From contig NZ_QNRH01000009.1 in assembly GCF_003314995.1 (NCBI RefSeq), forward strand, positions 1 through 64,000: a DNA stretch of 64,000 bases. Direction: 5' to 3'. Origin of the DNA: Pseudochrobactrum asaccharolyticum. GTDB taxonomy: Bacteria > Pseudomonadota > Alphaproteobacteria > Rhizobiales > Rhizobiaceae. Made by a program: the position numbers and the translations under genes. Below, in pieces: positions 1-16,962 of the stretch; positions within the stretch are counted from its first letter, which is position 1; each line of letters opens with the position of its first letter. The notes below the pieces were generated by a model. It worked only from the letters and a program-made list of their open reading frames with translations, was not told where the DNA came from and did not search any database.

Positions 1-12
1 CCCGTTCGGCCT

Positions 13-35
13 GAAATCGATAATCAATCGATTTC
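13..35. repeat. short perfect hairpin upstream of the tRNA
   Basis: Nine-base perfect arms (gaaatcgat / atcgatttc) with a five-base loop. A second small hairpin (tcaggc-tac-gcctga) lies at 54-68. Neither has a T-run, so they are not clear terminators. They fill the space before the tRNA gene, and no coding sequence was seen in 1-103. Confidence 0.4.
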
Positions 36-103
36 TATACGGCCTCACCTCATCAGGCTACGCCTGACTTCGCTCCCGGGCAGCAAGGCTCGACAATACT
101 TGA

Positions 104-180
<77 letters not shown>

Positions 181-214
181 AAATCACAAAAAAATTACAT
201 ATGATTACATAAAA

Positions 215-858
215 GGGTGTTTGTTAAGTTAAGTGTGTGATGTCGAGTCTGATACATGGTCACGAACCGTTGCAACGCTCCCGCTTTCAAACGGCAAGTG
301 GCTATTCTCAGCTCTGTTATTGAGGCCTTTGTACGACCAATGAACGAGGCTGAGAGCTACATTCGCCTTTGCGGCACCATAGGAGCGCAGTTTATCGTTG
401 ACGATCCGTTTTGGAGCAAAGCCATTGCGCTTCATCAATGCTATAAGCAGTCGCTTAGCAGCCTTCTTGTCACGCCGCTTTTGCAGTATTTCTTCGAGAA
501 CAGTGCCGCGTTGATCGACTGCGCGCCAAAGCCAGAACTTGGTTTCAGCACATTTCACCACGACTTCGTCCAGATACCAAACATCGCCGGGGCGAACTTG
601 TCGCCGTCGTAGATTACGAGCACTCTGCGGTCCAAACTTTGCGATCCAGTGCCCGATAGTCGTACATCCCACGCTCGAGCAGCATTTCTTTAACTTCACG
701 CAGGCTCAGGTTGAACCGCAGGTAAAGCCAAACGGCGTGAACAATGATTGCGGTGCGAAACGGTGATGCTTGAAATTGATAACTGGTATTTGCATCATCG
801 AAATTTACGATCAACCCAGCACGCAGGTAACCGCGAACCGCTTAAAGTGAAAACACCC
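215..858 (-). mobile_element. IS6-family insertion sequence, decayed copy 1
   Basis: The right end at 858 carries, read on the minus strand, gggtgttttcactttaagcg. A matching but imperfect end (gggtgtttgttaagttaag) starts at 215. The element encodes an IS6-type DDE transposase on the minus strand that is broken by several indels. The transposase-start end faces the CDPS islet. A related partial copy lies in the opposite orientation at 4345, so the two copies bracket 859-4344. No convincing target-site duplication is visible (acataaaa on the left, taatatgc on the right), consistent with later rearrangement. Confidence 0.8.
229..814 (-). pseudogene. IS6-family transposase, frameshifted
   Basis: The N-terminal part (starting near 814) contains VWLYLRFNLSLREVKEMLLERG, the usual IS6 helix-turn-helix region. 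After a frameshift near 690 the catalytic core continues with IGHWIAKFGPQ, DVWYLDEVVVK (first Asp), LWRAVDQ, the region with VNDKLRSYGAA (second Asp) and NNRAENSH (Glu). After NSHLPF the frame shifts again, and the expected RKRER-type C-terminus is found only by changing frame. The enzyme cannot be made intact, so mobility would need a helper in trans. Confidence 0.85.
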
Positions 859-896
859 TAATATGCCTGGAATAGCGGCTTACATACCCAATAACG

Positions 897-2292
897 CTAT
901 TTTTCTTCCTCAGATGAGTTTGAAGACATAATATTCATCGCTCTATTGTTTAACGCAATATACATAAGTAAAGATACAATTCCTATAAAAATGGATATAT
1001 AAAATAGCAATTGATAGGAACTATTTATATTGATGTAGCTGTGGGTAACATAAATAATCAAAAATCCTGCTAGCAAACCTCCGAATACACCACCAAGCTG
1101 CTGTATTATTCTGGTTATGGCACTTGTATCATGTATATATTCCTTTTCTGAATATTCAAATGGCGCCGCTAGAACTGAAATCGTTGCTATCCCCAAACCA
1201 GATCCACGAATTATGAAACCGATACATTCAAGGAACGTTCCTTCTTTCTGTATTATAATTATGCTAAATGCGGATACAAAAATACTTATAGATATTACTA
1301 AAAAAGAATTATAGTATTTTAAATTATAATATATAATTCTCCGCGCTAACCATGCTCCTATGCCCTGTAAGCCAAGCAGTATTCCTATATATATTGTTGA
1401 GTACCCCCCCTTCGATTGACTTAATCAGTGGAAAATATATTAGAAAACTGTAAAATATAAATGACGTAAGCAATCCCATAACTAAAGAAGATGAGTATTC
1501 AATTTTTTTGAATTGCGATAAATTCAAAAGATGATTGGTAGATTTGTTATTAAATATTATAGATACTATAAGGATTAATATTCCAGATAATAATAATACA
1601 AAATAGCAGTAAGATTCGCCATTAACTGAGATAATATTATTTATTGATAATGGTATTAAAATTAAAGACGAAAAAAATAACAAGAATAATGGTATATTTA
1701 CACTCAGGGAAATTTTTTCTGTTTTCGGAAAAAATTTAGTTCCGACAATCATTGAAATAATCACTAGGGGGGCATTTATAAAAAACGCCAGTCTCCAATT
1801 TAAACTCTCAGTAAGAATAGCTCCCAGCAATGGTCCCAAAGCTGGTGCAAACACAGCAGGGATAGCAATTAACGCCATTACTGATTTCAAGCGTTGCTTG
1901 CCAAACTGAATCGCCAACGCAGACTGCCCTAGCGGTAATAGCACCCCAGCACCAAGCCCTTGGAGACAACGTGATGCGATCAATGAAACCATATTGAGAG
2001 ATAACCCAACAAGCACTGAGCCTGAAAGAAAGATGAGCATGGCGTAAACCCATGCATTCTTTAATCCTTGAGTTTTGCTTATGACAGATGAGAGCAGTAT
2101 GCCTCCTGAGCAAGCCAGCATATAAGAGGTGATAGCCCACTGCATTTGTGTTATTGATGCGCTGATATCTTTTGATATACTAATAAGTAGAACATTGATT
2201 ATACTTGCATCAATAAGAGGTAGAATACTGGATAGCATAAGTGCAAATATAAGTTTTTTCTCGCTATTGGTGTAAATTGTAGGGTGATCCAT
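897..2292 (-). pseudogene. DHA2-type MFS exporter, interrupted at a G7 run
   Basis: Third gene of the CDPS operon. Its ATG at 2292 lies one base past the P450 stop, with an AGAGGG Shine-Dalgarno inside the P450 gene, so translation is probably coupled. The first part (about 300 residues) is a drug:H+ antiporter-2 type permease with hydrophobic helices, WAITSYMLA, CLQGLGAG and a motif-C-like ALGPLLGA. The frame breaks at 1404-1410, seven consecutive G on the coding strand. Reading six G restores an open frame down to 897 and gives about 464 residues, the normal length for a 14-TM DHA2 protein, ending in an acidic SSEEEK tail. By analogy with YvmA of Bacillus it would export the cyclodipeptide product. 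It could be a true pseudogene, phase-variable or a sequencing error. Confidence 0.8.
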
Positions 2293-2293
2293 A

Positions 2294-3475
2294 TCAAACC
2301 CTCTTAAGATAATATTCAATTGCACCACGCGTATAAACGCCATCGAATTTGGGTGGCTCGGCTTCTACATAAGAGTTAATGATGGGGACTAACTTTTCAA
2401 GCGCAATGCTTAATTGCATATTTGCAAACTGGGCGCCGATGCAAACATGCATCCCCGCTCCATACGAAAGGTGACTTTTGTAGCTTCTGTAGGGGGCAAA
2501 AACAGAAGGAGAAATAAAATATTTTTCGTCTCTATTTGCAGAAGGTATCAGAGAATATATTAGTTCTCCAGCTCTAAAATTTACTCCTCCAATACAACTA
2601 TCAACTTCAATTAACCTTGGTATAAGATGCACGGGAGGTGTTAACCTCAAACATTCTTGAATTATAAGATTATGAGAACAACTTCCGTCTAATAATTTAT
2701 CGGTATAATTTTTATCCCTATATAAATGATAGATACAATTAGCCAAAACTTTATCGACAGGCTCAGATGCGGCTAATAATATATTTAAAGTCAGCGCTAC
2801 AATATCACTATCATTTATTATATTATTATACTCACTATCTTTTAATATAAATGAAATAATATCAGATTTTAGAGATATTTTTCTTTCATCTATCAATTTC
2901 AAAATAGCAGATTCAAGTTCCTCCGCTGATAACAAAGACGATTTTTGGGTGCCTTCCGATAGATTAAAACCAATTGCGAATTTCAAAATATTTTTAAGTC
3001 TTACATGGAACCAGTCAAATTGCGAATGATCTATTCCAATTATTTCAAATGTAGAAAGAATAGCAAATTTATTACCTAACTCTGCAATGAAATTAAATTT
3101 GTCTTTACCTGACAAATCAATAATTAATGAATCAAATATTTCTATAAGTTTTGGTTTATAATAATACTTGAGGATATTACCAGTAAATTGTTGTAATATA
3201 ATATGCCTTTTTATTCTATGCTCTTCCCCTTCCATCTGAGCCAATACCTTACCTTTCATAATTGGCTCTGCCCGTTCTGCTAACGGTTTGGTCGTATAAA
3301 TATTGTGATTTTTTAAAATATGCCTAACAGCGTCATAACTAATTGCCAAATGAGAATTTAGTGTCTCATCAAAAATAACGTCTTCTGATTTATTTAAATT
3401 ATCAATTAATACATATGGATTTACATTATATATATCTGATAAAATCCCGGGGAAATGACTTTTCTCAATAAACAT
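2294..3475 (-). CDS. cypX: cytochrome P450, CypX-like cyclodipeptide oxidase
   Basis: A 393-residue P450, close to the roughly 405 of Bacillus CypX, which oxidises cyclo(Leu-Leu) to pulcherriminic acid. Recognisable features are TTKPLAERAEPIMKG and LAQMEGEEH near residues 60-85; an I-helix LLAASEPVDK that lacks the usual acid-alcohol pair, as CypX also does (AATEPADK); the ExxR motif ECLR followed by PPVHLIPR; and a heme loop YGAGMHVCIG with the cysteine ligand, where the usual Phe is Tyr. A good Shine-Dalgarno (AAGGA) precedes the ATG. The gene follows the CDPS gene by 38 bases and touches the exporter. Its DNA is very AT-rich compared with genes at 5-8 kb, which suggests transfer. A redox partner is not encoded nearby. 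The family assignment is strong; the exact substrate is inferred. Confidence 0.88.
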   Translation of the reverse strand: MFIEKSHFPGILSDIYNVNPYVLIDNLNKSEDVIFDETLNSHLAISYDAVRHILKNHNIYTTKPLAERAEPIMKGKVLAQMEGEEHRIKRHIILQQFTGNILKYYYKPKLIEIFDSLIIDLSGKDKFNFIAELGNKFAILSTFEIIGIDHSQFDWFHVRLKNILKFAIGFNLSEGTQKSSLLSAEELESAILKLIDERKISLKSDIISFILKDSEYNNIINDSDIVALTLNILLAASEPVDKVLANCIYHLYRDKNYTDKLLDGSCSHNLIIQECLRLTPPVHLIPRLIEVDSCIGGVNFRAGELIYSLIPSANRDEKYFISPSVFAPYRSYKSHLSYGAGMHVCIGAQFANMQLSIALEKLVPIINSYVEAEPPKFDGVYTRGAIEYYLKRV

Positions 3476-3513
3476 AGGTTGATCCTTTTTCTTAGAATTT
3501 TATAATAAATATA

Positions 3514-4149
3514 TCACCCATGATCTTTAATAATAATTTTTGTTTTTGAGTAAGGATTTAATAAAATATTGCCACTATATATGTATTCTACTATAGGCCA
3601 AGTGCAATAGTATGATACGTGAATAATATCGTTAGTTTTTATTAAGGTGGAGGGTGCTATAATAAATGGCAATTCTCTTAATATATAATTTGTTGCAACA
3701 TTTAATTTATCTTCATCAATTGTATTTTTGCTAAATGTCGCGTTTTTCCTCTGGAGAATTGCTTTGTATGATTGCTCTTTACATATAGAACAAAATAATT
3801 CGTCATTGTTAAATAAATAATTTACTTTTTCATACAAATAATCATATATAGCAATATTATAAAAATCGGAAAATTTTAAAACTTTATCACAATATAATGA
3901 ACTTTCATTATTTTTTAGAAAGCAATTTACCGCTCGCTCAGTACGGTAAAACTCTTTTCTTGATTTCTTTCTAGCTTTATTAACATCATCACCACATCCC
4001 ATTAATAGATATTTAGCTTCTTCATAAGGATGCAATACATCTACACATTCATAATTCTCAAACCCCCATTTTAACATTCTGGTTAGATAAAATTCATTGA
4101 ATTTTGAGTTGAATGGGCTAATACCAAATAAAACGTGTGATTTTTTCAT
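3514..4149 (-). CDS. cyclodipeptide synthase (YvmC/AlbC family)
   Basis: About 211 residues (216 if ATG 4164 is used; 4149 has a weak GAG at better spacing). The family uses two aminoacyl-tRNAs to make a diketopiperazine. The N-terminus reads HVLFGISPFNSKF, matching the YvmC motif GISPFNS whose first Ser is the nucleophile that carries the aminoacyl group. LKWGFENYECVDVL and EAKYLLMGCG follow, then a basic helix (KARKKSRKEFYR) of the kind that contacts tRNA. NYILRELPF supplies the conserved Tyr and, four residues later, the catalytic Glu. SYYCTWPI near residue 185 aligns with the AYHRPW segment of YvmC. It is somewhat shorter than YvmC (about 248), mainly at the ends. Next to a CypX-like P450, cyclo(Leu-Leu) is the likely product; this is inference. 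Confidence 0.85.
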   Translation of the reverse strand: MKKSHVLFGISPFNSKFNEFYLTRMLKWGFENYECVDVLHPYEEAKYLLMGCGDDVNKARKKSRKEFYRTERAVNCFLKNNESSLYCDKVLKFSDFYNIAIYDYLYEKVNYLFNNDELFCSICKEQSYKAILQRKNATFSKNTIDEDKLNVATNYILRELPFIIAPSTLIKTNDIIHVSYYCTWPIVEYIYSGNILLNPYSKTKIIIKDHG

Positions 4150-4344
4150 TTTTATTACTCGCATAGTAACGATTAATTCAAATCACAATAAAATTGTAAT
4201 CTCGCTTTAATACAAATGAATGAAAATGCAAAATTATAAACACAAATAATCAATATTGAATCTAAATTGTTGATTATTATATTTCATTATATACGAATAT
4301 AACACATAAATTTAATTCAGATAATAACAATATATAGTGTAAAG
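4150..4344 (-). promoter_or_regulatory. AT-rich promoter region of the CDPS operon
   Basis: This stretch between the CDPS start and IS6 copy 2 is extremely AT-rich and must hold the operon promoter unless the IS supplies one. It contains an inverted repeat aataatcaa (4245-4253) / ttgattatt (4270-4278) with a 16-base spacer. That could bind a regulator or simply reflect base composition. No regulator gene such as the MarR-type YvmB of Bacillus is present between the IS copies, and I see no clear Fur box. Confidence 0.4.
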
Positions 4345-4557
4345 AGGTGTTTTCACTTTAAGCGGTTTGCGGTTACCTGCGTGCTGGTTTGATCGTAAAT
4401 TTCGATGATGCAAACACCAGTTATCATTTTCAAGCGCCACCGTTTTGCACCGCAAATCATTGCTTACGTCGTTTGGCTTTACCTGCGGTTCAACCTGAGT
4501 CTACGTGAAGTTAAAGAAATGCTGCTCGAGCGTGGGATGTGCGTTTGCTATGAGACA
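4345..4557 (+). mobile_element. IS6-family insertion sequence, truncated copy 2
   Basis: The end ggtgttttcactttaagcgg and the next roughly 200 bases are nearly identical to the inward end of copy 1 but point the other way. The encoded N-terminal fragment (ATG at 4405) includes VWLYLRFNLSLREVKEMLLERG and then CYET, after which similarity stops at about 4557. The DDE core is missing. The cut lies only about 35 bases from the stop codon of the neighbouring doxX-like gene, so the element was deleted up to that gene. Confidence 0.8.
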
Positions 4558-4592
4558 TGGAAAGCAGACAGCCGACGTCTCTCACGGATATC

Positions 4593-5015
4593 TTAGACCG
4601 GTGTTATTCCGGAGTTCATCCAGAAAATCATGATGAGAAGCAGCAGTCCGCCCACCAAGGAGATATGCTCAAGAACGAAATGAAGTTCTTGTGTTCGTCG
4701 AGGCTCGGAGCATCTCCAAAACGCATGACCAAATGGAATTGTGAGAAGAGTGAATATAGAAAGAGCGCCTGCACCATACCACCCCCACTGATTGAAATCC
4801 GTGATAATCAAAAATGAAGCAACACCCTGAAGAACAATCGCTCCTGCTGCAACAAAACGCGGACAGGGTAGACCAACCCTTTGTACTGCACCTGCAAAAG
4901 CATTGAAATTTATTAACCCGAGAAAGACCTCTGACCAAAATAATGTTGTAATCATGATCCGTACAAAGAGGAACATGAGCGGACTATCCGCAATTGAGTG
5001 AGCAATGCTCGACAT
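4593..5015 (-). CDS. DoxX family membrane protein
   Basis: 140 residues with four hydrophobic segments: about 15-35 (MFLFVRIMITTLFWSEVFLGL), 58-75 (AAGAIVLQGVASFLII), 80-100 (WGWYGAGALSIFTLLTIPFGHAFW) and 115-133. The FGHAFW motif and overall pattern are typical of DoxX/DoxD-like proteins, small inner-membrane proteins often linked to respiration or redox stress. The sequence appears complete, and base composition is closer to the host than to the CDPS islet. No operon partner is obvious, since pdhA stops about 195 bases upstream. Confidence 0.75.
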   Translation of the reverse strand: MSSIAHSIADSPLMFLFVRIMITTLFWSEVFLGLINFNAFAGAVQRVGLPCPRFVAAGAIVLQGVASFLIITDFNQWGWYGAGALSIFTLLTIPFGHAFWRCSEPRRTQELHFVLEHISLVGGLLLLIMIFWMNSGITPV

Positions 5016-5209
5016 AACTTTTCACCATATAATATGAGTGATTTCGTGTGGTGCAGTTTAAGGCGTGCGGCTCGTGTTTTGTTCTTCTTTTAGAGCCACA
5101 TACGATATCCGTATGGCCTCTGCTGATTGATATCTAAGAGGTCGACATCGACACGGCAGAGACCAGTCTTAAGACTGCTTCTTGCAGAGAAATATCCGGT
5201 TTCGCGTCA

Positions 5210-6199
5210 TCACGCATAAACATCCGTATAAAGTTGTGCCGGATCGGGCAGGGGCGCAGATTTGGCGAAGGTAACTGCCTCCGCGACAATTTCTTTGACC
5301 TCGTTTTCGATCAGTTTAAGGTCATCTTCGGTTGCATGTCCGTGTTCGAGAATACGAGCGCGCGAACGGTCAATGGGATCGTTCGCGTTCTTGACCTTTT
5401 GCACTTCATCACGTGAGCGATATTTTGCCGGATCTGACATTGAATGTCCCCGATAACGGTAGGTAAGCATTTCGAGGATGAATGGCCCTTTGCCTGCTCT
5501 TGCATGTTCGACGGCGCGCAGGCCGGCGGCGCGTACGGCCCGTACATCCATAGCATCGACCTGCTCGCCGGGGATGTTAAACGATAAGCCGCGCTGCGAG
5601 AGATTCAGGTTAGCCGACGCCCGCTCAACACTGGTGCCCATGCCATAGTGGTTATTCTCGATGATATAGACAACCGGCAGATCCCAGATCTTGGCCATGT
5701 TGAAACTTTCATAGACCTGCCCCTGGTTGGAGGCACCGTCGCCGAAATAGGTCAGGCAGACACGATCATTGCCACGATATTTGTTGGCGAATGCGAGCCC
5801 CGTTCCGATGGAGACTTGCGCCCCGACAATGCCATGTCCGCCGAAGAAACCTTTTTCAGGCGCGAACATATGCATGGATCCGCCCTTACCTTTCGATATC
5901 CCATCCATGCGTCCGGTGAGTTCGGCCAGCACAGCCTTCGGGTCCATGCCCGTCATTAGTGCATGACCGTGATCGCGATAGGCAGTGATGACCTGATCAC
6001 CTTCACCGATTGTCATCTGCATTCCGACAACGACAGCTTCCTGTCCTATATATAGGTGGCAGAAACCTGCAATCAGTCCTTCGCCATACATCTGCCCGCA
6101 ACGTTCCTCGAAGCGACGGATCAATAGCATGTCGCGGAAGGCTTTCAGTTCTTCGTCTTTGCTGAAGACGAAATCGGTGTCAGCATTGTGCTTGGCCAT
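5210..6199 (-). CDS. pdhA: pyruvate dehydrogenase E1 alpha subunit (orphan copy)
   Basis: Thiamine-diphosphate-dependent E1 alpha chain. The start MAKHNADTDF at 6199 has an AGGAAC Shine-Dalgarno. The N-terminal FVFSKDEELKAFRDMLLIRRFEE, the HLYIGQEA segment, GKGGSMHMF, the TPP motif GDGASNQG...NN (IIENNHYGMG) and the loop RYRGHSMSDPAKYRS are all present. The length (329) fits alphaproteobacterial PdhA without its Ala/Lys-rich N-terminal extension. The E1 beta, E2 and E3 genes that normally follow pdhA are absent, so this is an extra copy that either needs a beta subunit from elsewhere or is a relic. Only about 40 bases separate it from the SMR gene, suggesting co-transcription. Confidence 0.9.
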   Translation of the reverse strand: MAKHNADTDFVFSKDEELKAFRDMLLIRRFEERCGQMYGEGLIAGFCHLYIGQEAVVVGMQMTIGEGDQVITAYRDHGHALMTGMDPKAVLAELTGRMDGISKGKGGSMHMFAPEKGFFGGHGIVGAQVSIGTGLAFANKYRGNDRVCLTYFGDGASNQGQVYESFNMAKIWDLPVVYIIENNHYGMGTSVERASANLNLSQRGLSFNIPGEQVDAMDVRAVRAAGLRAVEHARAGKGPFILEMLTYRYRGHSMSDPAKYRSRDEVQKVKNANDPIDRSRARILEHGHATEDDLKLIENEVKEIVAEAVTFAKSAPLPDPAQLYTDVYA

Positions 6200-6240
6200 G
6201 GTTGTTCCTTTAATTTCAAATGAGCAGAGAGCACCAAGGC

Positions 6241-6558
6241 TCAACTGCTCGTCAGTTTGAGACCGACGATCCCGCTAAGCGTGACCGAGATCCAAAAGAG
6301 GCGGACGAAGGTTGCCGGTTCGCGGAAGACCACAATGCCGACGACGATCGAGCCGATGGCGCCGATGCCCGTCCAGACCGCATAGGCCGTGCCGAGCGGC
6401 AGCACCTGAAGTGCTTTTCCAAGCGCGTAGATGAATGTGGCGAGTAGGATGAATGACAAGATCGACCACGATAACCGGCTGTAGCCGTCTGCCATCTTCA
6501 CACATATGGCCCACGCGACATCCAGCAGGCCGGAGACGATGAGAAGTGTCCATGCCAT
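6241..6558 (-). CDS. SMR-family small exporter (SugE/Gdx type)
   Basis: 105 residues with four membrane helices, beginning MAWTLLIVSGLLDVAWA. The motif LPLGTAYAVWTGIGAIGS is diagnostic of the SugE/Gdx branch (guanidinium or quaternary-ammonium exporters) of the small multidrug resistance family. The membrane-embedded acidic residue in helix 1, normally Glu in GLLEVxWA, is Asp here. That residue couples substrate and proton binding, so transport properties may differ. The gene precedes pdhA in the same direction. The start at 6558 was chosen because it matches the family N-terminus. Confidence 0.85.
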   Translation of the reverse strand: MAWTLLIVSGLLDVAWAICVKMADGYSRLSWSILSFILLATFIYALGKALQVLPLGTAYAVWTGIGAIGSIVVGIVVFREPATFVRLFWISVTLSGIVGLKLTSS

Positions 6559-6944
6559 CGTTGTTTCCACTCCTGTGTCCATTCTCTCAGCTGTTCATTT
6601 CGTCATGCCTGGCAAACACGAAATGCACTGGCCTGACACAAGGGGCGATGATAGGAACCCTTGCGCGAATTGCGCGCTGTATTTTGGCAAGCGGGATTTT
6701 CCGATCGGCAATCCTGCCGTCAGACAGGGCAGGATGTCATCCGTTCATCGTTGTCACGACGAAACAGTTGCATAGCAGCACGATCACAGGACTGGTCAGG
6801 CTTGCAATCTGGCAAAAATTTTTTGCCGAATTGCAACGCCGGCAGGCGGGATTTACGTCTATTGTAAAAAGCCGGATTACTCTGTCCGGGGAATTTTGTG
6901 TTATTGCTATTTCCAATTAGCAAGAGAAAATATTAAAATGTGCT

Positions 6945-7886
6945 ATGTATTTGCAGAATGGAAAGAACGTGAGCGACTGGAATGAATTCAAAATTGTTCT
7001 GGCGGTTGCACGTGCCGGCTCGTTGGCCGGAGCGGCGAAGGATTTGGGACATGACCATTCGACGATCTTCCGGTGGCTGAACGCGCTTGAGAAGCGGAAG
7101 GCCGTTCAGCTTTTCGACCGGACTTCCGGCCAGTATGTCCCCACTGATGCCGGCGCTCAGATGGTCTTGGCGGCGGAGCGGATGGAAGCTGAAGCACTGG
7201 CGCTTGATCGATCAATTACAGGTCAGGACACACGGCTTTCGGGCAAGCTCAAGGTCACCTCATCTGAGACGCTAGCCTATCGGATCCTGAACGAGGTTCT
7301 GGCAAGTTTCCGTCATGAGCATGGTGGTATCGAGATTGAATTGCTCGTTGATAACCGGCAGCTTGATCTCCTGCGACGTGAGGCCGATATAGCGATCCGT
7401 GCTACGCGGCCACATGAAGGCGAGCTGTTCGGCCGCAAGATCGCATCGACGCCGTGGACTTTTTACGGCAGCAGCATCTATCTGTCTGAGCATGGCAGCC
7501 CGACCGACCTTGCTTCCCTTTCAGGACATGCCGTCATCGGTTGGGATAGCGGTGCTGTCGCGGCGGCATCCGAGTGGTTGACGAAAAACATATCGCCCCA
7601 TGCCTTTTCCTATCGTACCAGCAGCCTCATTAACCAGCTCATGGCGGTGAAGGCCGGTTTGGGGGTGGCGCTTCTGCCTTGCTATCTCGGCGACCAGGAG
7701 TCCGATATCGAGCGGATTCTGGAGCCGCTTGATGAACTGACCAGAGAGTTGTGGCTAATTACACATAAGGATTTGCGTAACACGGCACGCGTGCGGGCGT
7801 TCTTTGATCATGTCGGCGGTGGATTGCTGGCACGACGGTCGCTTCTGGAAGGCGATCTGTCGGGGACATTCGAAGAGATGGATTGA
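6945..7886 (+). CDS. LysR family transcriptional regulator
   Basis: 313 residues. The N-terminal winged helix spans about 12-70 (FKIVLAVARAGSLAGAAKDLGHDHSTIFRWLNALE), followed by a LysR substrate-binding domain (KLKVTSSETLAYRIL onwards, with DIAIRATRP and LGVALLPCYLG). The HDHSTIFRW recognition helix is typical of the AmpR/GcvA-like branch. It is divergent from the SMR-pdhA pair and convergent with the GST gene. An internal GTG at 6969 (VSDWNEF) would give the more usual LysR N-terminus. The target is unknown; the divergent SMR promoter is the simplest guess. Confidence 0.9.
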   Translation: MYLQNGKNVSDWNEFKIVLAVARAGSLAGAAKDLGHDHSTIFRWLNALEKRKAVQLFDRTSGQYVPTDAGAQMVLAAERMEAEALALDRSITGQDTRLSGKLKVTSSETLAYRILNEVLASFRHEHGGIEIELLVDNRQLDLLRREADIAIRATRPHEGELFGRKIASTPWTFYGSSIYLSEHGSPTDLASLSGHAVIGWDSGAVAAASEWLTKNISPHAFSYRTSSLINQLMAVKAGLGVALLPCYLGDQESDIERILEPLDELTRELWLITHKDLRNTARVRAFFDHVGGGLLARRSLLEGDLSGTFEEMD

Positions 7887-7908
7887 TCGCGCTCCTATTG
7901 GATGGATA

Positions 7909-8526
7909 TTATTTGATCAGACCTTCCGCTATGAGCGTGTCCCGTACACTCTTGCGCTCCGCGATTTTCGACTGATAGTGTGCCAGATTGGGCCACGCTG
8001 CCAGATCAATATCCCGGCCTTTCGACCAGTTCACGATGGTAAAGCAATATGCATCGGCAATGGTGAAGCGATCGCCCACGAGATAGTTGTGGTTGGCCAG
8101 ATAGTTGTCGAGCAGGTGGAAACGCTCGTGAATCCTTTGCTTCGCAACTTCGGTTGCCTGTTCACCATATTCGGGATGAAACAACCAAGGGCTGAATGTT
8201 TTGTGCAATTCTGAACTGATAAAGGTCAGCCATTCGTGCATCCGGTAGCGGTTGAAGCTACCCTGCGGGGGCATCAATCCCGCTTCCGGTTTCTGATCGG
8301 CCAGATAGATCAGGATGGCAACACCTTCGGTCAGCACTTGGCCATTGTCGAGTTCAAGGATCGGGACGACACCCTTCGGACTGACATCCTTGAGATCTCG
8401 GCCATCTTCGACGCGGTGCGGTACGCTGCGAATATCGACCTTGATCAGATCGAGAGCAATATCAGCCTCGGTTGCAGTGATGTGGGCGGCCATTGAGCAG
8501 ACACCCGGCGCATAATAGAGTTTCAT
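7909..8526 (-). CDS. gst: beta-class glutathione S-transferase
   Basis: 205 residues from MKLYYAPGVCSMAAHI. The Cys at position 10 is the hallmark of bacterial beta-class GSTs. The thioredoxin-fold domain includes SPKGVVPILELDNGQVLTEG (cis-Pro and the glutathione-binding Glu), and the C-terminal helical domain carries LVGDRFTIADAYCFTIVNW. It conjugates or reduces with glutathione in the cytoplasm. An upstream in-frame extension to 8571 lacks family similarity and was not used. The 3' end is convergent with the LysR gene. Confidence 0.9.
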   Translation of the reverse strand: MKLYYAPGVCSMAAHITATEADIALDLIKVDIRSVPHRVEDGRDLKDVSPKGVVPILELDNGQVLTEGVAILIYLADQKPEAGLMPPQGSFNRYRMHEWLTFISSELHKTFSPWLFHPEYGEQATEVAKQRIHERFHLLDNYLANHNYLVGDRFTIADAYCFTIVNWSKGRDIDLAAWPNLAHYQSKIAERKSVRDTLIAEGLIK

Positions 8527-8571
8527 TCCAGACTCCCTGCCTCTTATTGTATAAGAAACAGAATAACGCAT

Positions 8572-9125
8572 TGTTTTACTATCGCGAATTGGAAGGTGGC
8601 AAACTCATATTGCAAGACCGCAGTATTAACGTGAGAGTTTACCGAAGCTAGAAATGCCGATATTGCCATCGGCATTTCTTCCAGAAGACACTTTGTTTTA
8701 TTCTTCAGGCTTGCTGGAAGTGCGAGGCGCTTGTTTGTAAATCGAAGTCGAGCGATTTAGACAGCCTGTTTACATGCGTGAAATGTTGGTCGTTAAAACC
8801 ACGAACGGGCGCAACAGGTGTCCGATGTCGCATAAACCATGTCATCAATACTCCGAAAATTCGTCTGCGGCAAATATTGCAATGGCTTGTCTACGTTTTG
8901 TGTCCATGGTCAAAGCTTATGTATCGGTAATTTAAATTATATATCAATACAATAAATTGATCATCAAAATTTCAAAAAAGAAATATAAATAAATTTGACA
9001 ACGCAGACGAAGATGGATTAAATGAATATTATTTTCTAATTAATTTATAAATAAGAAATTTATCCATAATTTGCATCATTTAAATATTTATATTTTTTAT
9101 TAAATTATTTATATCATAGGTAAAA
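8572..9125. other. intergenic, AT-rich toward the right
   Basis: No gene is seen. It contains an isolated 11-bp hairpin at 8651-8678. At its left edge is the 19-base sequence taagaaacagaataacgca (8552-8570), which recurs at 10557-10575. From about 8930 the DNA becomes very AT-rich, leading into the lipoprotein pseudogene. Confidence 0.5.
8651..8678. repeat. perfect 11-bp hairpin
   Basis: gaaatgccgat / atcggcatttc with a six-base loop (attgcc). There is no T-run on either side. It sits upstream of gst and does not end any visible gene, so it may be a relic terminator, a protein-binding palindrome or an RNA structure. Confidence 0.5.
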
Positions 9126-9535
9126 ATGTATATTGTATTTAATTTATTTTTTAAAAATATAAAATTTACAAAAATATTGTCATTTATATTTTTTGGCATA
9201 TCCCTGGCAGGCTGCGGCGGACGAAATGCGCACCAATCGCTGCAACAAATCCAACCGATCGTATTTTTGACTGTGCGGGAATTTCCCGTGAGTTCTTAGC
9301 GAATGAACGCTCAATACAAGCAACCCTTAAAGAGCGCACTCTCTCTCAAGGAAAAAATGTTGCAGTTGGAGCAGCAGGGCTGGTATTTTTTCCTGCATGG
9401 TTTTTTCTCGATCCTAAATCTCCTGAGAAAAAAGAGATAGACGCCTTACGTAATCGTAATAAAGTCCTGGAAGATATCAATCTCTCTAAAGGATGCGGGC
9501 CTATCAGATCACAAATGAATACGATTTATAAATAA
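9126..9535 (+). pseudogene. small lipoprotein gene, frameshifted
   Basis: The start ATG at 9126 opens a basic, hydrophobic signal sequence ending in a lipobox FFGISLAGC, so the product would be lipidated at that Cys. Directly after the lipobox (about 9210-9225) the frame is lost, and the next stop is at 9300-9302. In another frame the sequence continues TDRIFDCAGISREFLANERSI, then GAAGLVFFPAWFFLD, and ends KGCGPIRSQMNTIYK at 9535. Together this makes about 135 residues with a second membrane segment. The family was not recognised. One indel explains the break, so it could also be a sequencing error. Confidence 0.6.
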
Positions 9536-10667
9536 CCTCAAAGCCGTTATATAGAGGTGACGTTGCCCCCGAGTTTTATTCAGTTTTGAATTCGTTCCGG
9601 CGGTTTTTATTACTGTCATTAGGTTGTTTGTAACGTGGTGCTGTTCGGGCTTGTATCCGGGGTATGGCATCGCCAAGAAGATGGAGTCGTTTGAATTTGG
9701 TGTGCCGGCCAATCGGCACAATGAACACTGCGGCTTGCGCCATTGCAATACTCGACGCCACCTTACGTCACCGCTTCACGTTCCGGGAGCTGACGTCGGA
9801 CATTGTCGAGCTTCGCCGGGCTTTGAATGCTCGGAAGCTCGATGCCGAATATCTTGATCCGCATCTTTTGAGTTAAACTGACCATAGCGTGCTTAAGGGA
9901 ATGTAACGTCGTTAGTTTGAGTGCGAGGAGGACTTGCCGACCCTTCACTGGCAGTTTGCCTGCCGGTTTGATCTGTTGTCCGATGGCATAGCACTCAACC
10001 GGATCATGAGGACGGCCGTAGTTCGTTTTCTACGCGTTTAAAACAGCAGTACAAGCCAGCAATCAGGTGTTTCAGAACAGAAGCTGCATCTCCCATCCCT
10101 TTACGCACATGATCTTTGGAACAGGCAATGCCTATGCCAGAGATGATTTGTTATTCGAAATTTGAACGTATGATGCTGATGTAAGCTTGAGGTTTTGCAG
10201 AATTACCCCAAAGAGCAGCCGGTCTTGAAGATTGGCGCCACTTTTATCACTGACCATTTTGTTCGAAACACCACCACTTGCCACGGTTTTTTAAAGGGAC
10301 AACATACGATACTGATATTTCTGCGCGTAGATAGTATGAAATCGGGGTCTGACCGTTATGGTCAACAGCCGATTAAGATAGACCCATTGCCTTTCACATT
10401 TATAGAAGTCTCGTCAACACGCGAAGAAATGACGCTTGGCTTTTATGTCTTTGAACCTGAGCCGTAATCTATGACGAGTAGCGAGCTGCCCACCAGGGCA
10501 ATGTAGCATGATGAAAGTCGACCCCAAGTTTAGCCATGATTTCCTGATGATTACGCTAAGAAACAGAATAACGCACGTAGAAGAAAATCGCGTAAAGAAT
10601 GACACTTTGGGGAAATGGTTTTTTGAAGTCCATTACCAGCAATTGTTGACTCACTCATTATTCGCCC
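9536..10667. other. no recognisable gene; decayed DNA
   Basis: Only short unsupported reading frames occur on either strand. The minus strand between about 10010 and 9763 can be read as a continuous RPHDPVECYAIGQQIKPAGKLPVKG-like segment, which hints at an old coding remnant of unknown family. The 19-base repeat at 10557-10575 is shared with 8552-8570. This looks like degraded accessory DNA. Confidence 0.4.
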
Positions 10668-10713
10668 CAATGGTGATATAGCTCAGCAAAAGTGGAAAAT
10701 TTGCGATATTACC
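10668..10713 (-). mobile_element. IS6-family end remnant
   Basis: The sequence around 10670-10710 (ggtgatatagctcagcaaaagtgg... ending tttgcgat) closely resembles the end of the IS6 remnant at 19461-19505 (ggtggcatagctcaacagaagtg... tttgcgac). It is a solo fragment without transposase and marks an old insertion or deletion next to dadA. Confidence 0.55.
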
Positions 10714-10742
10714 GGAATGTGACTTGTTTTCTATGGGTAGTC

Positions 10743-11978
10743 TCAAAATTCTCTGTCAGAGAATTGTGTTTGACGACCTGCGATGCGATCAGCCAGCAGT
10801 TTTGCGCTGCCCGTGCTCAGTGTAAATCCTAAGCTGCCATGCCCGATGTTGAGCCAAAGATTGCTCAGTGATCCTTGCTTGATTAATGGAGAGCTGCTTG
10901 GGCGTGCAGGGCGTAATCCTGCCCAACAAACGGGATCAGCTGAGGCTCTTAAGTTTGGAAAAAAGCTTGAAACTTGTTTTTTGAGCAAATTAATGCGGTG
11001 ATTATTCAGGTCTTTGGAGGCGTCGCCGACATCAACCATTCCGGCAACACGCAACCGATTGCCTAGTCTCGCATAAACAACTTTATTTGCAATGTCGCTG
11101 ACACTGCAAAGAGGCGCTTCACTCTCCTGAGATAATGTATAAGTAAGGCTATATCCCTTGAGGGGATAAACTAAAGGGTTGGCCTGATGTCGCTGGAGCA
11201 GGGACTGTGCTCCGACGCCATTAGCAACAACATAAGCATCAAATTGCAATTCTCCTGCCGATGTTTGTAATGAGGTTATTTTACCAGCGCTGGCATTAAG
11301 CTTCTTTACATCCGTATTGAACATGAAATGTACATCATTTTTTAATCGGAGGTACATTTCTTGGCAAAATTTATAACTGTCAGCTGAATCTTCTTTTGAC
11401 ATAAACAAGCCTCCAAAGACTGTTTGCTGACTAGATATCAATGCCGGTTCCAGTTGCAAACACTCCTCACGGGAAAGCTGTTGATATTTATCACCACCAT
11501 GGGTGACTTGGAATTGTAACTGTCTGGCGGCAGCGGACAGGCTTTCTTCATTGCTATAAATGAGCAGTTTTCCTTTGGAGGAAAAATCACAATCCAATAG
11601 TTCCTTGCTCATCAACTCGTGATAGAGCTCGCGGCTTTCTAAAGCGAGTTTGAGTAAGCTTAATGTATATTTTTGAGTCACATGAGTACGACATAAGCTC
11701 AAAAATTTTAAGCCCCATCGCCATTGGTTCATATCCGGGCGGACTTTAAAATGCAGCGGGGCATTTTTGTCTGTCAGCCAAAATGGCAATTTTGTCAGTA
11801 CTGAAGGTTCGGCAAGTGGTGTTACAAAATTATAGCTTAATTGCGCACCATTTGCGTAGCTGGTTTCTTGACCGACACTATTATTTCTCTCCAAAACAGT
11901 CACTTGATGACCGTCTCGCCTTAAATAGTAGGCTGTAGTTAAACCAATAATACCAGCACCAACGACAACAATATTCAT
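10743..11978 (-). CDS. dadA: D-amino acid dehydrogenase (FAD-dependent)
   Basis: 411 residues. The N-terminal dinucleotide-binding motif reads VVVGAGIIGLTTAYYLRRDGH, followed by ETSYANGAQLSYNFVTPLAEP, the signature of DadA, which oxidises D-amino acids to 2-oxo acids and passes electrons to the respiratory chain. The C-terminal WAGLRPARPSSSPLI and NIGHGSLGFTLSTGSAKLLAD are also DadA-like. It is the last gene in line after a Pot-type ABC importer (71-base gap), suggesting that the importer brings in a D-amino acid or related amine. The start MNIVVVGAG at 11978 is preferred over ATG 11987. Confidence 0.88.
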   Translation of the reverse strand: MNIVVVGAGIIGLTTAYYLRRDGHQVTVLERNNSVGQETSYANGAQLSYNFVTPLAEPSVLTKLPFWLTDKNAPLHFKVRPDMNQWRWGLKFLSLCRTHVTQKYTLSLLKLALESRELYHELMSKELLDCDFSSKGKLLIYSNEESLSAAARQLQFQVTHGGDKYQQLSREECLQLEPALISSQQTVFGGLFMSKEDSADSYKFCQEMYLRLKNDVHFMFNTDVKKLNASAGKITSLQTSAGELQFDAYVVANGVGAQSLLQRHQANPLVYPLKGYSLTYTLSQESEAPLCSVSDIANKVVYARLGNRLRVAGMVDVGDASKDLNNHRINLLKKQVSSFFPNLRASADPVCWAGLRPARPSSSPLIKQGSLSNLWLNIGHGSLGFTLSTGSAKLLADRIAGRQTQFSDREF

Positions 11979-12049
11979 TCTAAACAAGCCTGTATTTAGA
12001 CTGAAACGTCAGTCTATTATTACGTAATCGAGCATGAAAAGCAGATGCT

Positions 12050-13108
12050 TTATGGAAGTATGATACTTTCCTCAGCCTTAAAACAGACGAAGACTTTTGT
12101 ACCGTCTGCATGTATTCCTGTTCTGGCAGTTCCGTAAATGATGACTTGTTTTTTGTTCTCAAGATCAACGGTATAAAGTGCACGATCTCCGGAATACGTC
12201 GAACAATGTATGGTGCCCTGTAAAGATACGCGACCATCTATTGCGGGTTCAAGATTCACGCAGGCATCTTCAGGACGGAGAATGAATGCAACTTTTCCGG
12301 TATGTTTTGTGCCAGGTAAGGCGAATTCTATGTTGTCAAATTTAAACATAGCGCCTTTTTTATCTTTTCCTTCGGAGATTTCACCTTCAATTAGGTTTGA
12401 TTTGCCGATAAAATCGGCAACAAAGCGTGTTGTCGGGCGACGATAAAGGTCGAATGCACTGGCGAATTGTTCAATACGGCCGTTATTCATCACCGCAATG
12501 CAATCTGACATATGCATCGCTTCTTCTTGATCGTGGGTTACATTTATAAATGTAGTTCCCAGTGTTTTATGAATTTCCCGCAGTTCTTCCTGAAGATCAA
12601 CACGCAATTTCTTATCAAGTGCTGACATTGGCTCATCAAGTAAAAGTAAGTCGGGATTGAAAACCAAGGCACGGGAAAGTGCGACACGTTGTTGCTGCCC
12701 ACCTGATAGCTCGCTTGGTTTTCGCTTGGCGAACTTTGAAAGCTGAACAAGATCTAACATAGCATGAACACGTTTGCTGATTTCATCACGCCCCATACGT
12801 CTGACACGTAGCGGATAAGCAATATTATCAAAAACGGACATATGCGGGAATAACGCATAGCCTTGAAATACAACGCCGAAATTTCGTTTTTCGGTTGGCA
12901 CCCCGGACACATCGCTGCCATTCATCATAATGGCACCTGAGGCCAGAGGTTCAAAACCTGCGAGCAATTTCAAAAGTGTTGTTTTTCCGGATCCTGATGG
13001 GCCAAGTAATGTTACAAAAGCACCCTTTTCAATATTGATGGAAACATCAAATAAAGCTTGTGCATTTCCGTAGAATTTGTTGACGTTTTTGATTTCAATA
13101 AATGACAT
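12050..13108 (-). CDS. ABC importer ATPase, PotA-like
   Basis: 352 residues. Walker A GPSGSGKTT near 36-44, Q-loop FQGYALFPHM, signature LSGGQQQRV, Walker B LLLLDEP and the H-loop HDQEEAMHMSD are present. A C-terminal TOBE domain (about 280-350, ILRPEDACVN) marks the spermidine/putrescine/iron-type (MOI/POPT) importers. It energises the two permeases encoded directly upstream in the same transcript. Confidence 0.92.
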   Translation of the reverse strand: MSFIEIKNVNKFYGNAQALFDVSINIEKGAFVTLLGPSGSGKTTLLKLLAGFEPLASGAIMMNGSDVSGVPTEKRNFGVVFQGYALFPHMSVFDNIAYPLRVRRMGRDEISKRVHAMLDLVQLSKFAKRKPSELSGGQQQRVALSRALVFNPDLLLLDEPMSALDKKLRVDLQEELREIHKTLGTTFINVTHDQEEAMHMSDCIAVMNNGRIEQFASAFDLYRRPTTRFVADFIGKSNLIEGEISEGKDKKGAMFKFDNIEFALPGTKHTGKVAFILRPEDACVNLEPAIDGRVSLQGTIHCSTYSGDRALYTVDLENKKQVIIYGTARTGIHADGTKVFVCFKAEESIILP

Positions 13109-13127
13109 AGTCTTTTCCCGACGACGA

Positions 13128-13907
13128 TTACTTAGCCGTTTTTGAATTTTTTTGTGCCCAGTTGAGGAACAACAGGAACAAGAAGCTCACAATTGATAAG
13201 AGCAGTGCCACAACCACAATGGTTGGTTGAAGACGATCGCGCAGACTGGCAAACAATGCGATTGGCAATGTTGTTGTATCCGGCGACACCAAAAAGAGTG
13301 CAACAACGACCTCATCAAATGAGGTTATGAATGCAAAAATCGCACCGGCAATAAAGCCCGGGGCTGTGAGAGGTAAAGTAATTCGCCAAAATCGATGTGT
13401 ACGACTTGCACCAAGTGAGGCGGCCGCTCTGTCCAGATCCGGATTTAACAGTTTTAGCGATGTCATAACTGACAAGAAAACGAGCGGAGCGCCAAGAATT
13501 GCATGTGCAAGTATGATTGATGTATAGCTTCCTGCAATCATCATTCGACCAAAAGAATAGGCGAATGCAACACCTATAACAATACTTGGTAGTACGAGTG
13601 GTGAGACGAATAGTGCTGTCAGAATAACTTGCGCCAGACGACCGGTAAGCAAAACTCCGATCGCTGCCATTCCGCCGATTAATGTAGCTACAATCATCGC
13701 CCCTAGAGCAACGACCAGGCTATTCAACAGGGCTTTGCTCCAAATCGCTTCCTGATACACATGGTAAAACCAGTCGAAGGTAAAACCTTCCATCGGATAT
13801 GTCAGGAATGAGCTGTCATTAAAAGCTAAAGGCAGGACAAGTAAAAGAGGCAGCGCAAGAAAAGCTATACTGATTGTCAGGCTGATCCAATAAATAAAAC
13901 GGGACAT
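13128..13907 (-). CDS. ABC importer permease, PotC-like
   Basis: 259 residues with six predicted helices. The cytoplasmic coupling motif DRAAASLGASRTHRFWRITLP (EAA loop) is present near residue 165. It begins one base after the PotB-like gene ends, so the two are translationally linked. It forms the membrane channel with that protein. Confidence 0.9.
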   Translation of the reverse strand: MSRFIYWISLTISIAFLALPLLLVLPLAFNDSSFLTYPMEGFTFDWFYHVYQEAIWSKALLNSLVVALGAMIVATLIGGMAAIGVLLTGRLAQVILTALFVSPLVLPSIVIGVAFAYSFGRMMIAGSYTSIILAHAILGAPLVFLSVMTSLKLLNPDLDRAAASLGASRTHRFWRITLPLTAPGFIAGAIFAFITSFDEVVVALFLVSPDTTTLPIALFASLRDRLQPTIVVVALLLSIVSFLFLLFLNWAQKNSKTAK

Positions 13908-13908
13908 A

Positions 13909-15087
13909 TCAGAGTGTGCTCCTCTTTCGTGTCATTGCATAACGAAGTGCGGCATAGATCGACAGAAGAAGGATTACACTGAATAAAAGAAGCATGGACA
14001 GGGCCGCAGCCATACCCCAATTGAGGTGTTTCTTGATAAATTCTGCAATATAGAAAGAGAGCATCTGGTCATTAGGCCCACCTGTCAGTGCTGGCGTTAC
14101 ATAGAACCCTAAAGCCAAAATAAAAACGGTACCGCCTCCTAAAGTGACACCGCGCAAACTCTGTGGAAAATATACACGTATGAATGTCTCTGCCACGCCG
14201 GCTCCCAAACTGCGGGACGCATCTTTCTGTGCAGGCGGAATGGTACGCATAACATTGATCATCGGTATGATTGCAAATGGCAGCAACACATGTGTCATAG
14301 CAACAATTGCGCCAAAGCGATTGAAGATCAACTGAATTGGTTCTGCGATAAAACCTAGTGATATGAATAGGTTATTAATCAAGCCACTAGTCTGCAAAAG
14401 GATGACCCAAGCCACTGTCCGAACAAGGATAGAGGTCCAAAAACTCAGCAGCACCACCATCATTACGAAACTACCAAGGCGGGCACTGCCATTTGCTACA
14501 ACATAAGCAAGGGGATAGCCGATTAACAATGTCAATATTGTCACCTGCAAAGAGATCATCAGCGTGCGTAACATAATTCGCAGATAAATATCTTCGCCGG
14601 GCTTTACGGTGAGATGGCCGCTGACATCATAGGATACACCTATAGCTTTTGCCAAATGACGCATTGTATAGGGGCTGGTATTGCTTTCCAAAACGTCCCA
14701 ATACTTATCCTCAGCCCATCTTTTATCAAATGCTGTCAGAGCAGTGTAATTTTTTTCTATTCTCTCAACATTTTTTGCTGTGTTTAGAAACAGGCTTCGA
14801 AAACCACTGATTTCTTGATTAAGCATACGCGCCATTTCACCTTGCTCGCGTACACTCATTGCGCCGATGTCTTGTATTAAAGCTGCCGCTTTCTCATTCT
14901 GATCAACGCTGCCAACATATGCATTAAAATGGGTAAAACGATTGCTCATCTCACTATTATCAACGCTCAATGACATAATACTGCCAAGCGGAAGCAAGTA
15001 GACAAACAAATAGATCGCACATGGAACCAATAACAGCAAGAATGCCGCTAGATGTTTTTGTAAATGGTTTTTAGAGAATTTTGTCAC
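13909..15087 (-). CDS. ABC importer permease, PotB-like
   Basis: About 392 residues from a GTG start at 15087, which has a GGGGGGA Shine-Dalgarno at proper spacing; the upstream frame to 15150 runs through a stem-loop and is less likely. After the first helix there is a periplasmic insert of roughly 130 residues (about 50-175), a feature of some Pot-type permeases. The main permease domain and EAA loop (KDASRSLGAGVAETFIRVYFP) follow. Confidence 0.88.
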   Translation of the reverse strand: MTKFSKNHLQKHLAAFLLLLVPCAIYLFVYLLPLGSIMSLSVDNSEMSNRFTHFNAYVGSVDQNEKAAALIQDIGAMSVREQGEMARMLNQEISGFRSLFLNTAKNVERIEKNYTALTAFDKRWAEDKYWDVLESNTSPYTMRHLAKAIGVSYDVSGHLTVKPGEDIYLRIMLRTLMISLQVTILTLLIGYPLAYVVANGSARLGSFVMMVVLLSFWTSILVRTVAWVILLQTSGLINNLFISLGFIAEPIQLIFNRFGAIVAMTHVLLPFAIIPMINVMRTIPPAQKDASRSLGAGVAETFIRVYFPQSLRGVTLGGGTVFILALGFYVTPALTGGPNDQMLSFYIAEFIKKHLNWGMAAALSMLLLFSVILLLSIYAALRYAMTRKRSTL

Positions 15088-15117
15088 AGGCTTCCCCCCG
15101 TCACATAAGCAACTGTC

Positions 15118-15143
15118 ACCCCCGTCATTTGCAGGACGGGGGT
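15118..15143 (-). promoter_or_regulatory. intercistronic stem-loop after the binding-protein gene
   Basis: A nine-bp GC-rich stem (acccccgtc / gacgggggt) with an eight-base loop lies between the binding-protein stop and the permease start. There is no T-run after it in the direction of transcription. It is best read as an mRNA-stabilising or processing structure that allows more binding protein than permease. Confidence 0.55.
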
Positions 15144-15165
15144 ATTTCAAGCAGATGAAGTAAGA

Positions 15166-16197: not shown

Positions 16198-16228
16198 GTT
16201 CCACCCCTTTGTTGTTGTTTTTGCATCT

Positions 16229-16879: not shown

Positions 16880-16938
16880 TTATGTTCCCTGAAGGTGTTG
16901 CGTCAGCCATTTTTTTGTTTGTCATTTATGTAAAATTA

Positions 16939-16962
16939 AAATGTGACACAGTGTTCACATTT
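16939..16962. promoter_or_regulatory. palindromic operator candidate for the TetR regulator
   Basis: Perfect eight-base arms aaatgtga / tcacattt surround a partly symmetric eight-base centre (cacagtgt). The position, just upstream of the TetR-family gene at 16879, fits an autoregulatory operator. Confidence 0.55.

What the first reader, a model, noticed from the sequence alone, without database searches (positions are those of the whole stretch)
859..4344. Pulcherriminic-acid-type CDPS-P450-exporter operon in an AT-rich islet next to tRNA-fMet
Seen: a CDPS with GISPFNS and the Tyr...Glu pair in NYILREL; directly downstream a P450 with TTKPLAERAEP, LLAASEPVDK and YGAGMHVCIG; then a DHA2 exporter, all touching or overlapping and far more AT-rich than the genes at 5-8 kb. 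Known: Bacillus YvmC-CypX-YvmA make and export pulcherriminic acid from cyclo(Leu-Leu), and the unusual I-helix (AATEPAD) is a CypX trait. Inference: an alphaproteobacterial islet for an iron-binding diketopiperazine, acquired from a low-GC donor.
Basis: partly seen in the sequence, partly recalled or inferred. Interest (0 to 1): 0.9.

Follow-up and report, generated by a model that had tools for sequence, protein, structure and literature searches.

The report
Divergent pulcherriminic-acid-like diketopiperazine gene islet
A small foreign stretch of DNA carries genes for linking two amino acids into a ring and oxidising it, as Bacillus does for an iron-binding pigment, but the sites that grip the molecule have changed in both enzymes, so it may make a different compound, and its export gene is broken.

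Summary
Window 858-4345 is an AT-rich islet carrying a cyclodipeptide synthase (CDPS), a CypX-like P450 and a DHA2-like exporter on the minus strand, between two inverted IS6-family ends. Corrections: the exporter lies in two reading frames (broken as assembled) and is not of the YvmA type; the tRNA belongs to a segment repeated at contig ends (probably an rRNA-operon end). The nearest relative found is an intact, equally AT-rich three-gene cluster beside an integrase gene in Citrobacter braakii (CDPS 55%, P450 62%, exporter 49-56%). The two form a pair on a long branch, their P450s 30-37% identical to the other CDPS-linked P450s compared and below an NCBIfam cut-off that the Bacillus, Photorhabdus and Marinomonas members scored do pass. 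Catalytic residues are kept, but substrate-facing residues changed in both enzymes: CDPS pocket P2 (Met152 to Gln; 155, 159, 204 also) and subfamily residue His203 to Tyr; P450 active-site lining (His158 to Leu, Gln281 to His, Ile165 to Ala; 17 of 17 other rows keep His158 and Gln281). Best reading: a mobile, divergent branch of the CDPS-CypX pathway making an oxidised diketopiperazine. Pulcherriminic acid is possible but not shown; a related, perhaps undescribed, compound is about equally or more likely.

The parts
858..4345 (.). AT-rich islet between two inverted IS6-family ends
   Evidence: inverted arms 748-857/4346-4455 and 661-749/4455-4543, 93-94% complementary; GC drop
3514..4164 (-). 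cyclodipeptide synthase (216 aa; alternative start 4149)
   Evidence: PF16715 E 5e-36; AF2 model TM 0.83-0.88 to YvmC, BtCDPS and S. haemolyticus CDPS; S16, N19, Y160, E164, Y185 aligned with AlbC S37, N40, Y178, E182, Y202; Y186 at the place of H203
2294..3475 (-). CypX-like cytochrome P450 (393 aa)
   Evidence: TIGR04538 326 bits, below the cut-off of 500; best fold match 7ow9, a staphylococcal CYP134A1 orthologue with cyclo(Leu-Leu); active-site table
1324..2343 (-). DHA2-like MFS exporter, first piece; probable start just after the P450 stop, about 2291
   Evidence: MFS_1 E 4e-25, TIGR00711 E 1e-42; matches Citrobacter exporter residues 1-320
897..1400 (-). DHA2-like MFS exporter, second piece, in another frame
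   Evidence: matches Citrobacter exporter residues 302-454 at 56%; not joined or mended here
221..857 (-). IS6-family element remnant, left bracket (truncated transposase ORF 229-699)
   Evidence: PF13610 E 5e-23, NF033587 E 7e-32 but below its cut-off; 276-859 is about 78% identical to IS6 copies on Rhizobium/Agrobacterium plasmids
4346..4556 (+). IS6-family end remnant, right bracket, inverted relative to the left one
   Evidence: 93% identical to 661-857 reversed; 87% to the IS6 copy of relative G284
104..180 (+). tRNA-Met(CAT), in a segment repeated at contig ends; a neighbour, not part of the islet

Best explanation
The islet is a horizontally acquired biosynthetic cassette. The CDPS takes two aminoacyl-tRNAs, binds the first amino acid (probably Leu or another aliphatic residue) on Ser16, adds the second and releases a cyclic dipeptide. 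The P450, a divergent CypX relative, oxidises that ring, probably on its nitrogens as CypX is proposed to do. A DHA2-like MFS pump would export the product. Shown here: domain content, kept catalytic residues, fold matches, operon order shared with an intact Citrobacter cluster, foreign composition, the IS6 bracket, and the frame break of the exporter. Inferred: enzyme activities, the oxidised and possibly iron-binding nature of the product, and that product identity has shifted away from cyclo(Leu-Leu)/pulcherriminic acid because substrate-facing residues of both enzymes changed in the same branch.
For: CDPS and P450 family matches. Catalytic residues aligned with four solved CDPSs. Fold matches to cLL synthases and to a cLL-bound CypX orthologue. 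18 of 18 P450 relatives found in named genomes have CDPS sequence just upstream, intact in 15, split or interrupted in 3. Same three-gene order, intact, in Citrobacter. I-helix Pro in place of the usual alcohol, L64, R67, Y391 and T392 of CypX kept. Clade-specific changes: CDPS M152Q and H203Y against 15 of 15 other CypX-linked rows; P450 H158L and Q281H against 17 of 17 rows. Sister pair 100/100 in both trees. AT-rich in both hosts. IS6 bracket here and an integrase gene next to the Citrobacter cluster. Islet absent from the same place in relative G284.
Against: The exporter is broken as assembled, so the cassette may be decaying or the assembly wrong at a homopolymer. Position 203 is not a clean marker: Tyr also occurs in a Streptomyces CDPS without a CypX-like P450 in the fetched stretch, and Lys in two alphaproteobacterial CDPSs. 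P2 positions 155 and 204 vary among the relatives too, and R67 of CypX is Leu in Photorhabdus. Changes fixed on a long branch may be drift rather than new specificity. No metabolite data. The P450 model has only moderate confidence (pLDDT 79) and low confidence around the heme loop.
Confidence: 0.7

Rival explanations
1. True pulcherriminic acid cassette: the CDPS makes cyclo(Leu-Leu), the P450 turns it into pulcherriminic acid, and the substitutions are neutral divergence.
For: B-loop (L64, R67), I-helix and C-terminal loop of the P450 are kept; CDPS P1 keeps L65 and F185; best folds are cLL synthases and a cLL-bound P450; PMC5767969 (passage) reports that a Photorhabdus luminescens CDPS makes the Leu cyclodipeptide in a genome with the CypX-type enzyme.
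Against: CDPS positions 152, 159 and 203 and P450 positions 158, 165 and 281 differ from all CypX-linked rows compared; TIGR04538 scores are 326 and 364 against a cut-off of 500, while one Marinomonas, one Photorhabdus and one Bacillus member score 562-686.
Confidence: 0.35
2. Dead relic: the islet came in with IS6 elements and is decaying; no product leaves the cell.
For: Exporter split in two frames; IS6 copies are remnants; related clusters are broken in Bartonella (CDPS split in 2 of 2; P450 cut in 1 of 2) and in 2 of 5 Photorhabdus loci.
Against: CDPS and P450 ORFs are intact, and the second exporter frame stays open for 167 codons (0 of 20,000 resampled copies), so the break is recent or an assembly error at a G run.
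Confidence: 0.35
3. The P450 does a different chemistry (for example C-C coupling as CYP121, or hydroxylation) on the cyclodipeptide, and the compound is unrelated to iron.
For: Window P450 only 30-35% identical to the CypX-type rows; active-site changes.
Against: The unusual I-helix proline and the B-loop residues of CypX are kept; CypX structures lead the fold search.
Confidence: 0.15

Closest known systems
Citrobacter braakii ATCC 51113 unnamed cluster (L027 5305-8515)
   Same: gene order, orientation, low GC, clade-specific pocket residues; CDPS 55%, P450 62%, exporter 49-56% identical
   Different: exporter intact; an AraC-family gene 4295-5092(-) lies divergently upstream and an integrase gene 8556-9440(-) downstream instead of IS6
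Bacillus yvmC-cypX with yvmB and yvmA (pulcherriminic acid)
   Same: CDPS-P450 pair, catalytic residues, CypX I-helix proline
   Different: P450 31-34% and CDPS 30-31% identical to the Bacillus/Priestia members compared; no MarR-like ORF seen in the islet; exporter DHA2-like instead of the divergent Bcr/CflA-like MFS seen in Priestia and Staphylococcus; pocket changes
Photorhabdus, Marinomonas, Winslowiella and Bartonella CDPS-P450 clusters
   Same: proteobacterial CDPS-P450 pairs; exporter with DHA2 as best model directly downstream in Marinomonas, Winslowiella and two Bartonella
   Different: their P450s keep H158 and Q281; the complete CDPSs tabulated keep M152 and H203; Bartonella P450 groups with Winslowiella, not with the window

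Membership tests
Cyclodipeptide synthase (PF16715/TIGR04539) | curated model score over cut-off | tested here: met
   124.8 bits against 27; 128.8 against 45
Cyclodipeptide synthase (PF16715/TIGR04539) | catalytic Ser37, Tyr178, Glu182, Tyr202 (AlbC numbers) | tested here: met
   S16, Y160, E164, Y185 aligned
NYH subfamily of CDPS | N40, Y202, H203 (definition seen in passages of PMC7613923) | tested here: not met
   N and Y present, Tyr at 203; no P203 of XYP either. The fold is nearer to NYH members (TM to query 0.83-0.88 for YvmC, BtCDPS and 6ez3, 0.71-0.75 for AlbC and Rv2275) than to the XYP members Fluoribacter, Nocardia and Rickettsiella (0.58-0.70). The S. haemolyticus CDPS itself aligns Thr at 40, so the triad is not strict.
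CDPS-associated P450 (TIGR04538, CypX type) | score at or over the curated cut-off of 500 bits | tested here: not met
   326.3 bits; Citrobacter 363.8; Marinomonas 561.8, Photorhabdus 621.4, B. haynesii 685.8
CDPS-associated P450 (TIGR04538, CypX type) | I-helix proline instead of the usual alcohol (PMC7731078, section 10 read) | tested here: met
   P239 = CypX P237
CYP134 family | about 40% identity (naming rule, recalled) | tested here: not met
   28-33% in fold alignments with CypX structures and the staphylococcal orthologue; 30-35% to all 16 rows other than Citrobacter
Pulcherriminic acid pathway | cyclo(Leu-Leu) made and oxidised to pulcherriminic acid | not testable with these tools
   no chemistry; pocket residues argue both ways
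Pulcherriminic acid pathway | YvmA-type exporter and MarR-type YvmB regulator beside the pair, as in Bacilli | tested here: not met
   DHA2-like pump, no MarR-like ORF seen in the islet

The most novel reading that the evidence does not exclude
A second, undescribed chemotype of the CDPS-CypX pathway: both enzymes were retuned together to a cyclodipeptide other than cyclo(Leu-Leu), giving a new oxidised, possibly iron-binding diketopiperazine, spread between Enterobacterales and Alphaproteobacteria on low-GC mobile cassettes with a DHA2-like exporter.
Probability: 0.42. Interest if true: 0.66.

Novelty: new variant of a known kind. Interest (0 to 1): 0.5.

Why it matters
Product prediction for CDPS pathways leans on pocket motifs. 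Here a CDPS and its P450 changed substrate-facing residues in the same branch, which offers a natural test of how the pair is tuned. The clusters in Citrobacter, the window, Bartonella, Marinomonas and Winslowiella extend CypX-type pathways among Gram-negative bacteria beyond the Photorhabdus case seen in passages of PMC5767969, with another exporter type. In the held open-licence library the phrase 'cyclodipeptide synthase' with 'Bartonella' gave 0 papers, and with 'Citrobacter' gave 4 (listing): in one, PMC6920838, both words sit in unrelated passages; the other three were not opened. Searches gave listings, some capped, in which I saw no paper on these clusters.

Tried and rejected
Rejected: the tRNA as integration target. 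The first 180-206 bp recur nearly whole at contig ends C5, C11, C14 and C18 as well as here, as expected of an rrn 3' end. rRNA itself was not seen: Rfam was run on window 1-20000 only, and the contigs that I fetched around other copies stop within a few bases. Rejected: one alphaproteobacterial clade with the Bartonella P450s (p-AU 1e-7). Not supported: plasmid or phage carriage of close relatives. The best hits in 72,556 plasmid records are under 35% identical, with none in 50,697 phage records and none in viral contigs. Led nowhere: the genome-contig scan with the single CDPS found no relative; the sigma-70 scan was no better than shuffles (20 against a mean of 22.7); the Citrobacter DNA has no megablast match in E. 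coli; no paper on the staphylococcal P450 structure was among the 12 of 215 listed.

Rows dropped before counts: P450 tables and trees leave out L035 (short ORF), L043 and L044 (broken); CDPS tables and trees leave out L032 and L037 (split), L043 (interrupted) and L044 (intact, not added). The Legionella row served as CDPS outgroup; four generic P450s as P450 outgroup. The structure alignments A3 and A4 hold 13 rows each. The exporter tree holds the first window piece only.
Full report
What is there. Window 858-4345 is a compact AT-rich islet. On the minus strand it holds a CDPS gene (3514-4164), a P450 gene (2294-3475) and an MFS exporter in two frames (1324-2343 and 897-1400). GC is 27% for the CDPS, 32% for the P450 and 35% for the first exporter piece, against 52-56% for three neighbouring genes.

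Boundaries. The islet lies between two inverted copies of one IS6-family end. The left copy is a truncated transposase remnant (ORF 229-699). The right copy is about 200 bp. The left copy is about 78% identical to IS6 copies on Rhizobium and Agrobacterium plasmids, so the bracket looks alphaproteobacterial and the cargo does not. Five matching places occur in the own genome, two of them these brackets and the other three short pieces of 79-88 bp. In the genus relative with the most similar flank, G284, the DNA from 4590 on is 92% identical, but instead of the islet there are one IS6 copy and a transposase gene with integrase core. The P450 was found in 1 of 7 genomes of the genus, a CDPS in 2 of 297 genomes of the family (the other is a distant fusion protein) and in 1 of 398 of a phylum draw, the own genome. 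With the window CDPS as query, 3 of 385 genomes of the class match, own included.

The tRNA. tRNA-Met(CAT) at 104-180 belongs to a segment repeated nearly whole at the ends of four other contigs. I infer an rrn 3' end; rRNA was not seen in the held sequence.

CDPS. The AF2 model (mean pLDDT 86) matches BtCDPS, YvmC and the S. haemolyticus CDPS at TM 0.83-0.88 of the query length, rmsd 1.7-2.7 A. Alignment with solved sequences puts S16, Y160, E164 and Y185 on the catalytic Ser, Tyr, Glu, Tyr. N19 matches N40, but Y186 replaces H203, one of the three residues that define the NYH subfamily (PMC7613923, passages). P2 pocket positions (AlbC 152, 155, 159, 204, 206, 207) follow those mutated in PMC6173783 (passages), carried over to AlbC numbers by me. 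Among 15 CypX-linked rows other than Citrobacter, 15 have M152 and H203, 15 have G or S at 159, and none has K at 155 or C at 204; window and Citrobacter have Q152, K155, Q/K159, Y203 and C204. P1 is more like that of the cLL enzymes: L65 and F185 kept, F/Y186 to I/L, L/M200 to V/I. Against over-reading: Tyr203 is also present in a Streptomyces nigrescens CDPS without a CypX-like P450 in the fetched stretch, and Lys203 in two alphaproteobacterial CDPSs.

P450. The best solved sequences are CypX and its staphylococcal orthologue. The model (mean pLDDT 79, weak around the heme loop) ranks 7ow9 first, the orthologue with cyclo-L-leucyl-L-leucine bound (TM 0.87). PMC7731078 section 10 (read) lists CypX active-site parts: L64, R67, F-helix end 158-166, I-helix 229-237, 278-285, Y391 and T392, and an unusual proline in place of the oxygen-activating alcohol. 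In the alignment L64, R67, the I-helix proline, Y391 and T392 are kept. H158 becomes L, I165 becomes A and Q281 becomes H in window and Citrobacter only; the other 17 rows all have H158 and Q281, and I or V at 165. The score against TIGR04538 is 326 bits (Citrobacter 364) with a cut-off of 500, which the Marinomonas (562), Photorhabdus (621) and Bacillus haynesii (686) proteins pass; the other relatives were not scored.

Relatives. A scan of the 84,980-species genome collection with a three-sequence P450 profile gave 18 loci. All 18 have CDPS sequence just upstream: split in the two Bartonella loci, interrupted in one Photorhabdus. The two patterns used were strict, so this is a lower bound. 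The nearest is Citrobacter braakii ATCC 51113: CDPS 55%, P450 62%, exporter 49-56%, same order, intact, GC 30-31%, next to an integrase gene and a divergent AraC-type gene. It is rare there too: 1 of 17 genomes of that genus and 2 of 246 of that family, the second being half a P450 at a contig edge, 56% identical. In trees window and Citrobacter pair with full support in P450 and CDPS and at 95/97 in the exporter. The stems are long, and deeper placement is unsure (90/89 with proteobacteria for the P450). Bartonella P450s group with Winslowiella (99/99), while the Winslowiella exporter groups with Marinomonas (98/99): the cassettes seem to have been shuffled.

Exporter. The best model for the window piece, Citrobacter, Marinomonas, Winslowiella and both Bartonella pumps is the DHA2/EmrB family TIGR00711; Marinomonas (265 bits) and Winslowiella (231) pass its cut-off of 230, while the window piece (146), Citrobacter (173) and Bartonella (170, 180) do not. 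The Bartonella pumps are about 40% identical to the window pieces. The MFS in the YvmA position of Priestia and Staphylococcus is best matched by Bcr/CflA, below its cut-off. In the window the frame changes near a run of seven G at about 1404-1411; the two pieces between them cover the homologue. A recent break and an assembly error cannot be told apart here.

How it most likely works. Two aminoacyl-tRNAs go to a cyclodipeptide on the CDPS (family knowledge; catalytic residues shown). The P450 oxidises the ring. CypX is proposed to oxidise both ring nitrogens and then aromatise the ring to pulcherriminic acid, although the mutant enzyme studied gave what seemed a mono-oxidised product. The pump exports the product. 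The first step is well supported, the second supported in kind, the product unknown. PMC5767969 (passages) reports the CypX-type enzyme in Photorhabdus luminescens and a CDPS of that species that makes the Leu cyclodipeptide; it also says that one P. luminescens cluster holds both an NYH and an XYP enzyme, so that it is my assumption that the NYH-like L038 gene is the one tested. Photorhabdus enzymes keep M152, H203, H158 and Q281, which makes the changed residues of the window branch more notable.

Limits. No metabolite or expression data; host and donor unnamed; the literature search covers open-licence PMC text only. 'cyclodipeptide synthase' with 'Bartonella' gave 0 papers and with 'Citrobacter' 4, one of which I looked into without finding a link; searches are listings, of which 52, 90 and 109 show only part of the papers found.

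Noticed in passing
L032 5170-5956 and L037 5125-5939: Both Bartonella clusters have the CDPS split into two ORFs, and the P450 of B. florencae is cut short: the pathway seems to be decaying there.
   Followed up: partly
L043, L044: Photorhabdus thracensis CDPS and P450 are interrupted, and the P. bodei P450 is split, in otherwise related clusters.
   Followed up: no
L087 1417-3591: An alphaproteobacterial CDPS (Lys at 203) is fused in one long frame to a PAS domain and a histidine-kinase ATPase domain: a CDPS-sensor fusion.
   Followed up: partly
L002 1318-2610: A distant CDPS domain fused to a cyclic-nucleotide-binding domain in a genome of the same family as the window.
   Followed up: partly
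L026 4935-7689: Legionella lytica plasmid: CDPS gene overlapping a response-regulator gene.
   Followed up: no
L090 2923-5843: Streptomyces mirabilis plasmid: CDPS gene directly before a heavy-metal P-type ATPase, amid metal-responsive regulators.
   Followed up: no
L004 439-2658: A 739-aa frame with an N-terminal terpene synthase domain and a C-terminal P450 domain.
   Followed up: partly
window 8751-9250: A second AT-rich dip (GC 0.29) without an ORF of 150 aa or more, between host genes.
   Followed up: no
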